Shown: in pieces, positions 36,912 to 38,341 of the stretch | Layout: every line of letters starts with the position of its first letter | Numbering within the stretch: the stretch's first letter is position 1 | DNA from: Urbifossiella limnaea | GTDB lineage: Bacteria > Planctomycetota > Planctomycetia > Gemmatales > Gemmataceae | DNA length: 64,000 nucleotides | Direction: 5' to 3' | NCBI RefSeq assembly: GCF_007747215.1 | Contig: NZ_CP036273.1 | Location: 6,494,322-6,558,321 of the forward strand | Position numbers and translations under genes: made by a program | The notes under the pieces: model-generated | The model's database searches: none | Told to the model about the DNA's origin: nothing | Seen by the model: only the letters and a program-made list of their open reading frames with translations

Positions 36912-38009
36912 ATGACCCGGTTCGCCGCCGCCCTCGCGCTCGTCGTCGCCGGCGCCGCCCCGGGGTTCGCGCAGCTCGTCACCCGCCCCGTCGCGTACCA
37001 GCACGGCCCGGTCGCCCTCGAAGGCGTGACCGTCTTCGAGACGATCGGCCCGCCGAAGCGGCCGGGCGTGCTCCTCGCGCACGAGCAGGGGCCGAACGGC
37101 GTCGCCGCGAAGGGGAAGGCCGCGCAGTTGGTGAAGCTCGGGTACGTCGTCCTCGCCGCCGACCTGTACGGCAAGGGCGTGGCCCCGAAGGACGCGGCCG
37201 ACGCCGCGGCCCGGCTCGGGCTCGGCGGCAAGGACCGGGTGCTCGTCCGCGGGCGGGTCGCCGCCGGGCTGGCGGCGCTGGAGAAGCTGCCGAACGTGGA
37301 CCCGAAGCGGCTCGCGGCCGTCGGCTACGGCGCGGGCGGCACGGCGGTGCTGGAACTCGCCCGCGCCAAGGCCGAGGTCGAGGGCGTCGTCTGCGTCCAC
37401 GGCGACCCGACGCCGACCGGGAACGACGGCAAGAGCGTCGGCGCCTCGGTGCTGGTCGTGGTCGGGGCCGACGACCCGGCCGTGCCCGCCGCCAGGCTCG
37501 CCGCGTTCGAGGCCGAGATGCGGGCCGGCGGCGTGGACTGGCAGGTACTCCGAATGGGCGGGGTGGCCGGCGACTTCACCAACCCGCTCGCCGGCCGCGA
37601 CCTGAAGACCGGGCGCGCCTTCGACCCGGACGCCGACGCCCGCACGGCCGACGCGGTGAAGCTGTTTCTCGCCGAGATGTTCCCGCCGCCGAAGGCCGCC
37701 GCCGTCGCCCCGAAGGCGGTGCCGAAGGTCGCCCCCAAGGGCGTTCCCGACAAGGCGCTGAAGGTGCTGGAGCACGTGGACCGCACCGGCGACGCGATGG
37801 ACGGCTACGAGGGCGGCCGCACGTTCGGCAACTTCGAGCGGCGCCTCCCGCAGACGGACGCCCGCGGCGGCCGCGTCCGCTACCGGGAGTGGGACGTGAA
37901 CCCACTCCGCCCCGGCGTGAACCGCGGCGCCGAGCGGCTCGTCACCGGCTCCGACGGCTCCGCGTTCTACACCGCCGACCACTACGACTCGTTCACCCGC
38001 ATCCGCTGA
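36912..38009 (+). CDS. Secreted barnase-type ribonuclease fused to an inactive dienelactone-hydrolase domain
   Basis: A 365-aa exported protein. Signal peptide 1-20 (FAAALALVVAGAAPGFA). Residues 25-235 follow the dienelactone-hydrolase fold (PGVLLAHEQGPNG, GYVVLAADLYGKG, GADDPAVP). The usual GYCxGG nucleophile is GYGAGG (Gly140), and the catalytic His before FTNP is Gly220, so that enzyme is dead. After a Pro/Lys/Ala linker, residues 285-365 match the microbial RNase (barnase/N1-T1) family: FGNFERRLP, YREWDV (Glu326), RGAER (Arg338, Arg342), TADHYDSFTRIR (His357). These align with barnase Glu73, Arg83, Arg87 and His102 at near-identical spacing. It should cut single-stranded RNA, probably after G. 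A barstar gene follows after 11 bases. Confidence 0.88.
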   Translation: MTRFAAALALVVAGAAPGFAQLVTRPVAYQHGPVALEGVTVFETIGPPKRPGVLLAHEQGPNGVAAKGKAAQLVKLGYVVLAADLYGKGVAPKDAADAAARLGLGGKDRVLVRGRVAAGLAALEKLPNVDPKRLAAVGYGAGGTAVLELARAKAEVEGVVCVHGDPTPTGNDGKSVGASVLVVVGADDPAVPAARLAAFEAEMRAGGVDWQVLRMGGVAGDFTNPLAGRDLKTGRAFDPDADARTADAVKLFLAEMFPPPKAAAVAPKAVPKVAPKGVPDKALKVLEHVDRTGDAMDGYEGGRTFGNFERRLPQTDARGGRVRYREWDVNPLRPGVNRGAERLVTGSDGSAFYTADHYDSFTRIR

Positions 38010-38020
38010 CGGGAGCCGCC

Positions 38021-38341
38021 ATGCTGGTCCGCCTCGACGCCCGGCAGTTGCCCGACGCGGCTGCACTTCACGCCGCCGTCGCCGCCGCGCTCGGCTTCCC
38101 GCCGGGGCACGGGAAGAACCTCGACGCGCTGGTGGATTCGCTCACCCACCTCGACGACCCGCGGACGCCGACGGCCCGGGTGCAGGCGCTGCCCGGCGAG
38201 CTGACGGTGTTCCGCGTCGAGCACGCCGACGCCGCCCCGGCCGTGGTCCGGGCGCTGGCCGACGTGGTGGCGTTCGCCAACGAGCGGCGGTTGGAGAAGG
38301 GGCAAGGCCCGGTCGCCGCCGTGGCCTACGACCGGGGCTAG
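38021..38341 (+). CDS. Barstar family RNase inhibitor (immunity protein)
   Basis: A 106-aa cytoplasmic inhibitor of the RNase encoded just upstream. The barstar core reads LHAAVAAALGFPPGHGKNLDALVDSL and even keeps barstar numbering: Asp35 and Asp39, which in barstar plug the barnase active site, are present, as is Asn33-Leu34. Barstar Tyr29, Glu32 and Trp38 are changed (Gly, Lys, Val). ATG at 38021 has GGGAG before it. The 11-base gap points to one transcript, which makes the pair self-protecting. Confidence 0.9.
   Translation: MLVRLDARQLPDAAALHAAVAAALGFPPGHGKNLDALVDSLTHLDDPRTPTARVQALPGELTVFRVEHADAAPAVVRALADVVAFANERRLEKGQGPVAAVAYDRG

What the first reader, a model, noticed from the sequence alone, without database searches (positions are those of the whole stretch)
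36912..38341. Secreted barnase-like RNase on a dead dienelactone-hydrolase scaffold, with its barstar
Seen: the C-terminal domain has Glu326, Arg338, Arg342 and His357 spaced almost like barnase Glu73/Arg83/Arg87/His102, and ends DHYDSFTRIR. The fused DLH domain has lost nucleophile (Gly140) and His (Gly220). The next gene keeps barstar Asp35 and Asp39 at the same numbers. Known: barnase is an extracellular RNase held off by cytoplasmic barstar. Inference: the dead hydrolase has become a binding or delivery module, giving a planctomycete toxin-immunity pair for competition. I do not recall this fusion being described.
Basis: partly seen in the sequence, partly recalled or inferred. Interest (0 to 1): 0.85.

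Follow-up and report, generated by a model that had tools for sequence, protein, structure and literature searches.

The report
Secreted RNase fused to dead hydrolase
A planctomycete gene makes an exported RNA-cutting enzyme of the barnase family joined to a hydrolase domain that has lost its own active site, and the next gene makes the matching inhibitor; the same two-gene unit, with the hydrolase always inactivated in the same way, recurs in ten other planctomycete genomes.

Summary
Window 36912-38009 encodes 365 aa: a signal-peptide-like N-terminus, a DLH domain (PF01738, E=1.6e-26), a Pro/Ala/Lys-rich linker and a complete microbial ribonuclease domain (PF00545, E=4e-13). A barstar gene (PF01337, E=9e-13) starts 11 nt after the stop codon. 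The fusion is in 10 of 95 sampled genomes of the window's family and in a Humisphaera MAG. In all 11 fusions the hydrolase nucleophile is Gly and the RNase residues E73/R83/R87/H102 (barnase numbering) are kept. The hydrolase His is lost in 8 and kept in 3. All 50 unfused relatives examined keep Cys, Asp and His. The fused DLH domains form one clade (support 100/98). A barstar follows in 10 of 10 loci with complete downstream sequence, in two subtypes. The DLH domain evolves under purifying selection although its nucleophile is gone.

Best reading: an exported barnase/RNase Sa-type RNase carried on a pseudo-hydrolase, with cytoplasmic barstar protecting the producer. Whether it serves competition or RNA scavenging, and what the pseudo-hydrolase binds, cannot be settled here. 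Barnase-barstar pairs are already known in planctomycetes, so this is a new architecture of a known pair.

The parts
36912..38009 (+). exported DLH-ribonuclease fusion protein, 365 aa plus stop
   Evidence: conserved in 10 genomes of the family (the window's included) and in Humisphaera locus L100
36912..36974 (+). N-terminal signal-peptide-like segment MTRFAAALALVVAGAAPGFAQ (residues 1-21); a comparable segment in all 11 fusions
   Evidence: sequence reading and alignments; no dedicated signal predictor was available
36975..37679 (+). dienelactone-hydrolase fold domain (about residues 22-256), catalytically dead: nucleophile position Gly140, Asp188 kept, His position Gly220
   Evidence: Pfam PF01738 E=1.6e-26; model matches DLH structures at VIA Z up to 33.6 over 235 residues; Gly at nucleophile in 11/11 fusions against Cys in 50/50 unfused
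37680..37730 (+). Pro/Ala/Lys-rich linker (about residues 257-273)
   Evidence: low model confidence at 261-274; variable length in the alignment
37731..38006 (+). microbial ribonuclease domain of barnase/RNase Sa type (about residues 274-365); E326, R338, R342, H357 catalytic set; E309 at barnase Glu60; F308 at barnase Arg59
   Evidence: PF00545 E=4.2e-13; PDB hits to binase, barnase and RNase Sa3; residues invariant in 11/11
38021..38341 (+). barstar gene, 106 aa, 11 nt behind the fusion's stop; Asp35 and Asp39 kept
   Evidence: PF01337 E=8.7e-13; barstar fold, Foldseek probability 1.00; conserved neighbour

Best explanation
The two genes are an exported RNase and its cytoplasmic inhibitor. 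The first product leaves the cytoplasm by a Sec-type signal peptide. Its C-terminal domain is an active barnase/RNase Sa-type endoribonuclease (general base Glu326, general acid His357, phosphate-binding Arg338 and Arg342). The barstar binds any unexported RNase through Asp35 and Asp39 and keeps it off the cell's own RNA. The N-terminal DLH domain was an enzyme before the fusion, lost its nucleophile once at or near the origin of the fusion clade, later lost the His in most lineages, and is kept by selection as a folded non-catalytic carrier or ligand-binding module outside the cytoplasm. Shown by sequence: domain make-up, conserved RNase active site, loss of the hydrolase nucleophile, single clade, co-encoded barstar, purifying selection. 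Inferred: export, RNase activity, inhibition, no hydrolase activity. Open: what the DLH part binds, and whether the RNA attacked belongs to competitors or is food.
For: Domains and inhibitor above curated cut-offs. RNase residues aligned on binase and barnase and invariant in 11/11 fusions. Nucleophile Gly in 11/11 fusions against Cys in 50/50 unfused; His position G or S in 8, H in 3 (for L100 the alignment shows His, the alignment a gap). Fused DLH domains form one side of a branch, support 100/98. Barstar above the Pfam cut-off directly downstream of the fusion in window, L049, L050, L052, L053, L055, L057, by the session's barstar profile and alignment in L051 and L054, and by alignment and similarity in L100; in L099/L056 the first five barstar codons precede a contig break. 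Nei-Gojobori dN/dS for the DLH domain in the least saturated pairs: 0.14/0.93, 0.23/0.96, 0.22/0.74. DLH fold match Z 33.6; barstar fold match. Outside three close relatives only these two genes are shared between loci.
Against: No experiment. RNase activity is inferred; the barnase Arg59 position is Phe/Ile/Leu/Tyr in all fusions, which could alter activity or the inhibitor contact. The complex was not modelled. Two related RNases lack the DLH domain (L058, L059), so it is dispensable in those lineages. The signal peptide was judged by eye.
Confidence: 0.72

Rival explanations
1. Competition effector: the RNase is released to kill neighbours, the pseudo-DLH being the receptor-binding or entry module, and barstar is the immunity protein. 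(A refinement of the best explanation, not exclusive of it.)
For: Patchy distribution, 10 fusion genomes of 95 in the family; two barstar subtypes with the same RNase clade; RNase domains of the same Pfam family sit at the tips of Rhs proteins in the same family of bacteria, one with a barstar (L061) and one with another neighbour (L060); barstar listed as immunity for barnase toxins (PMC3482391).
Against: No shared neighbour gene for secretion or entry; the DLH part is conserved, not polymorphic; exported RNase-barstar pairs without such a domain are common in planctomycetes.
Confidence: 0.33
2. Nutrient scavenging: a periplasmic or extracellular RNase that breaks environmental or imported RNA for phosphate and nucleosides; barstar is only a safety lock; the DLH part tethers or stabilises the enzyme. 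(Also a refinement of the best explanation.)
For: Simple RNase-barstar pairs with N-terminal export or anchor segments are spread through the phylum; one relative carries a likely lipoprotein signal (L059); the pair has no shared toxin-island neighbours.
Against: Patchy presence among close relatives; no evidence on phosphate regulation was sought.
Confidence: 0.45
3. The DLH domain is an intramolecular lid or chaperone that keeps the RNase silent until the linker is cut.
For: Flexible Pro/Ala/Lys-rich linker; DLH retained by selection without its nucleophile.
Against: No inter-domain contact could be read from the model output; standalone RNases of the same kind exist (L058, L059).
Confidence: 0.12
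4. The DLH part is a decaying relic and only the RNase matters.
For: Loss of nucleophile and His; eroded DLH in L057; L058 keeps EVVTRP behind its signal peptide, as in the fusions, but no DLH.
Against: Purifying selection on the DLH domain, and 40-70% identity to the window over about 205-235 residues across the fusions.
Confidence: 0.1

Closest known systems
Barnase-barstar of Bacillus amyloliquefaciens; binase; RNase Sa family (PF00545 / PF01337)
   Same: Exported guanyl-type RNase with the Glu/Arg/Arg/His set; co-encoded cytoplasmic inhibitor with Asp35/Asp39
   Different: Fused behind a 235-residue pseudo-hydrolase; barnase Arg59 position hydrophobic or aromatic; short RNase Sa-like N-terminus
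Tox-Barnase / Imm-Barstar polymorphic toxin modules (PMC3482391)
   Same: C-terminal barnase-type domain behind another domain, toxin gene before inhibitor gene; planctomycetes listed
   Different: No Rhs, PVC, WXG or HINT parts; N-terminal part conserved and of DLH fold; no cassette variation seen
DLH-family enzymes (P91 phosphotriesterase 4ZI5, m3DLH 7JKA, ScDLH 7JIZ; 34-37% identity)
   Same: Fold and length of the N-terminal domain; Asp of the triad kept
   Different: Nucleophile Cys replaced by Gly in all fusions, His lost in most; fused RNase

Membership tests
Microbial ribonuclease family (PF00545, barnase/RNase Sa) | sequence profile above curated cut-off | tested here: met
   50.1 bits against cut-off 24
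Microbial ribonuclease family (PF00545, barnase/RNase Sa) | Glu73, Arg83, Arg87, His102 of barnase | tested here: met
   E326, R338, R342, H357, invariant in 11/11
Microbial ribonuclease family (PF00545, barnase/RNase Sa) | Arg59 of barnase (FxNRE motif); common in the family, not taken here as defining | tested here: not met
   F308 here; F/I/L/Y in the other fusions. Recalled as a substrate and barstar contact, not as general acid or base, so membership stands but the motif departs
Microbial ribonuclease family (PF00545, barnase/RNase Sa) | guanyl-preferring endoribonuclease activity | not testable with these tools
   needs an assay
Barstar (PF01337) | profile above cut-off, fold, Asp35 and Asp39 | tested here: met
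   48.5 bits against 23.4; barstar structures are the top fold matches; D35, D39 present
Barstar (PF01337) | tight binding to the neighbouring RNase | not testable with these tools
   no complex modelling offered
Dienelactone hydrolase family (PF01738) | alpha/beta-hydrolase fold of DLH type | tested here: met
   93.7 bits; Z 33.6, rmsd 2.0, 235 residues aligned to 7JKA
Dienelactone hydrolase family (PF01738) | Cys-Asp-His catalytic triad | tested here: not met
   Gly140-Asp188-Gly220; Gly nucleophile in 11/11 fusions, Cys in 50/50 unfused. A pseudoenzyme of the fold, not a working hydrolase of the family
Polymorphic toxin system | trafficking domain plus interchangeable C-terminal toxin cassettes | tested here: not met
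   same RNase behind the same DLH in 11 genomes; no Rhs or other known trafficking domain

The most novel reading that the evidence does not exclude
The pseudo-hydrolase is a purpose-kept receptor- or ligand-binding carrier that brings a barnase-type RNase to, or into, other cells: a non-polymorphic RNase-immunity pair of planctomycetes with a delivery domain made from a dead enzyme.
Probability: 0.22. Interest if true: 0.72.

Novelty: new variant of a known kind. Interest (0 to 1): 0.5.

Why it matters
It is a clean natural case of an enzyme domain that lost its nucleophile at or near the origin of a fusion and was then kept by selection as something else, attached to one of the best-studied enzyme-inhibitor pairs. 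That makes the question 'what does a dead hydrolase do for an RNase?' directly testable with small proteins. It also gives two barstar subtypes facing an RNase that lacks the Arg59 contact, useful for studying how this interface evolves.

Tried and rejected
PADLOC and NCBIfam: no model matches either protein, so not a listed defence system and not a named NCBI family. Plasmids: no record covers 80% of the fusion; the hits listed are unfused DLH enzymes. Phylum sample of 392 genomes searched with the fusion: no match covers both domains outside the window's own genome; the other PF00545 proteins found there read as non-DLH proteins. RNase-domain tree: too short to decide whether the standalone RNases L058/L059 lie inside or outside the fusions (14 open forks; AU p 0.448 for the fusions as one clade). 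Conserved neighbours: none beyond the two genes, except among three close relatives. PDB structure search of the whole model lists only the DLH part among the rows shown, which says nothing about the RNase part; that part rests on sequence. Papers: no text found on a dienelactone hydrolase-barnase fusion, on Gemmata with barnase, or on DLH pseudoenzymes; subscription papers are not covered.

Full report
WHAT IS THERE. The ORF 36912-38009 on the + strand reads as 365 codons plus stop, and 11 nt after its stop a 106-codon ORF follows at 38021-38341. Pfam puts DLH on residues 47-254 (93.7 bits, E=1.6e-26), Ribonuclease on 272-364 (50.1 bits, E=4.2e-13) and Barstar on 2-90 of the next protein (48.5 bits, E=8.7e-13), each well above its curated cut-off. 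The sequence begins with a typical signal-peptide-like stretch (read by eye). This is far beyond chance.

ACTIVE SITES. Against binase and barnase the RNase domain aligns so that E326, R338, R342 and H357 fall on Glu73, Arg83, Arg87 and His102, and E309 on Glu60, while F308 falls on Arg59 (numbering of barnase from general knowledge). RNase Sa3 aligns over nearly the whole domain (query 2-88 of 89), so the domain is complete in the RNase Sa sense. In the DLH domain, an alignment with 50 unfused relatives puts G140 on the Cys nucleophile, D188 on the Asp and G220 on the His.

RELATIVES. In 95 genomes of the family, 14 carry PF00545. A search with the whole protein shows 10 of them, the window's included, to be the DLH-RNase fusion (loci L049-L057). 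A pattern-based scan of 84,980 species genomes returned 8 loci. They include Zavarzinella formosa and, outside the family, a Humisphaera MAG (L100, 44% identity; MAG binning not checked). A sample of 392 genomes of the phylum gave no match covering both domains outside the window's genome. There, 17 other genomes carry a PF00545 protein without DLH, mostly with an N-terminal export or anchor-like segment and many with a barstar-like ORF next door.

THE DEAD HYDROLASE IS FIXED IN THE FUSION. All 11 fusions have Gly at the nucleophile and keep the Asp; the His position is Gly in 7, Ser in 1 (L057) and His in 3 (L053, L055, L100; for L100 by the alignment, while the alignment gaps there). All 50 unfused relatives have Cys, Asp and His. 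The fused DLH domains are one side of a branch with support 100/98, so this is best counted as one event with later His loss, and not as 11 independent ones. The nucleophile column was not removed from that tree, but it is one of 242 columns. Nei-Gojobori estimates on the least saturated pairs give dN well below dS for the DLH domain (0.14/0.93, 0.23/0.96, 0.22/0.74; rough, as dS is high). The domain is therefore maintained, not simply rotting, although L057 has lost pieces of it.

THE BARSTAR. A barstar follows directly in all 10 fusion loci with complete downstream sequence: window, L049-L055, L057 and L100. In L056/L099 the first five codons stand before the sequence breaks off near the contig end. 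Two subtypes occur: a short one of about 110 aa in window, L049-L052 and L054, and a long one of about 155 aa in L053, L055, L057 and L100, as also behind the standalone RNases L058 and L059. Similarity at E below 1e-10 is found only within subtypes. The predicted structure of the window barstar matches barstar structures. Asp35 and Asp39 are kept in all eight rows of one alignment.

STANDALONE RELATIVES. G044 (L058) has signal peptide plus RNase only, with EVVTRP after the signal as in the fusions, which suggests a deleted DLH. G092 (L059), of the window's genus, has a likely lipoprotein signal and RNase only. The RNase-domain tree cannot place them. Rhs proteins with the same RNase family occur in the family too, L061 with a barstar and L060 with a different neighbour.

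HOW IT PROBABLY WORKS. Exported RNase, cytoplasmic lock, non-catalytic carrier. Use in competition or in feeding on RNA is undecided. I lean slightly to a simple exported RNase because the pair is not polymorphic, shares no delivery genes beside it and resembles the plain exported RNase-barstar pairs of other planctomycetes. The patchy distribution and the change of barstar subtype speak for conflict.

KNOWN OR NEW. Barnase-type toxins with barstar immunity, planctomycetes included, and simple barnase-barstar pairs are described (PMC3482391). I found no description of the DLH fusion in the open library. New variant of a known kind.

Noticed in passing
L058:6800-7276 (+) and L059:6998-7411 (-): Standalone exported RNases of the same kind in G044 and G092 (the latter of the window's genus, likely lipoprotein), each followed by the long barstar subtype; L058 keeps EVVTRP after the signal as in the fusions.
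   Followed up: partly
L061:6600-7930 (-): Rhs-type protein with a C-terminal PF00545 RNase followed by a barstar.
   Followed up: partly
L060:8328-14199 (-): Rhs protein with an intein/Hint-like part and a C-terminal RNase, followed by what reads like a SMI1/KNR4-type immunity protein rather than barstar.
   Followed up: no
L002, L004, L005 (window's own genome, G000:C1 near 185 kb, 6.29 Mb and 2.21 Mb): Three further barstar-family genes in the genome, although only one PF00545 RNase is found there: possibly orphan immunity genes.
   Followed up: partly
L101: Record titled Candidatus Kuenenia stuttgartiensis carries the fusion, but its contig length equals that of G058:C10, a genome grouped with the window's family: the title looks wrong.
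   Followed up: no
window 37833-37835 (residue F308) and the other fusions: The Arg59 position of barnase is hydrophobic or aromatic in all 11 fusions, although most other planctomycete RNases seen keep FxNRE.
   Followed up: partly
L100:28-1443 (-): Transposase-like ORF next to the Humisphaera fusion, which may point to transfer.
   Followed up: no
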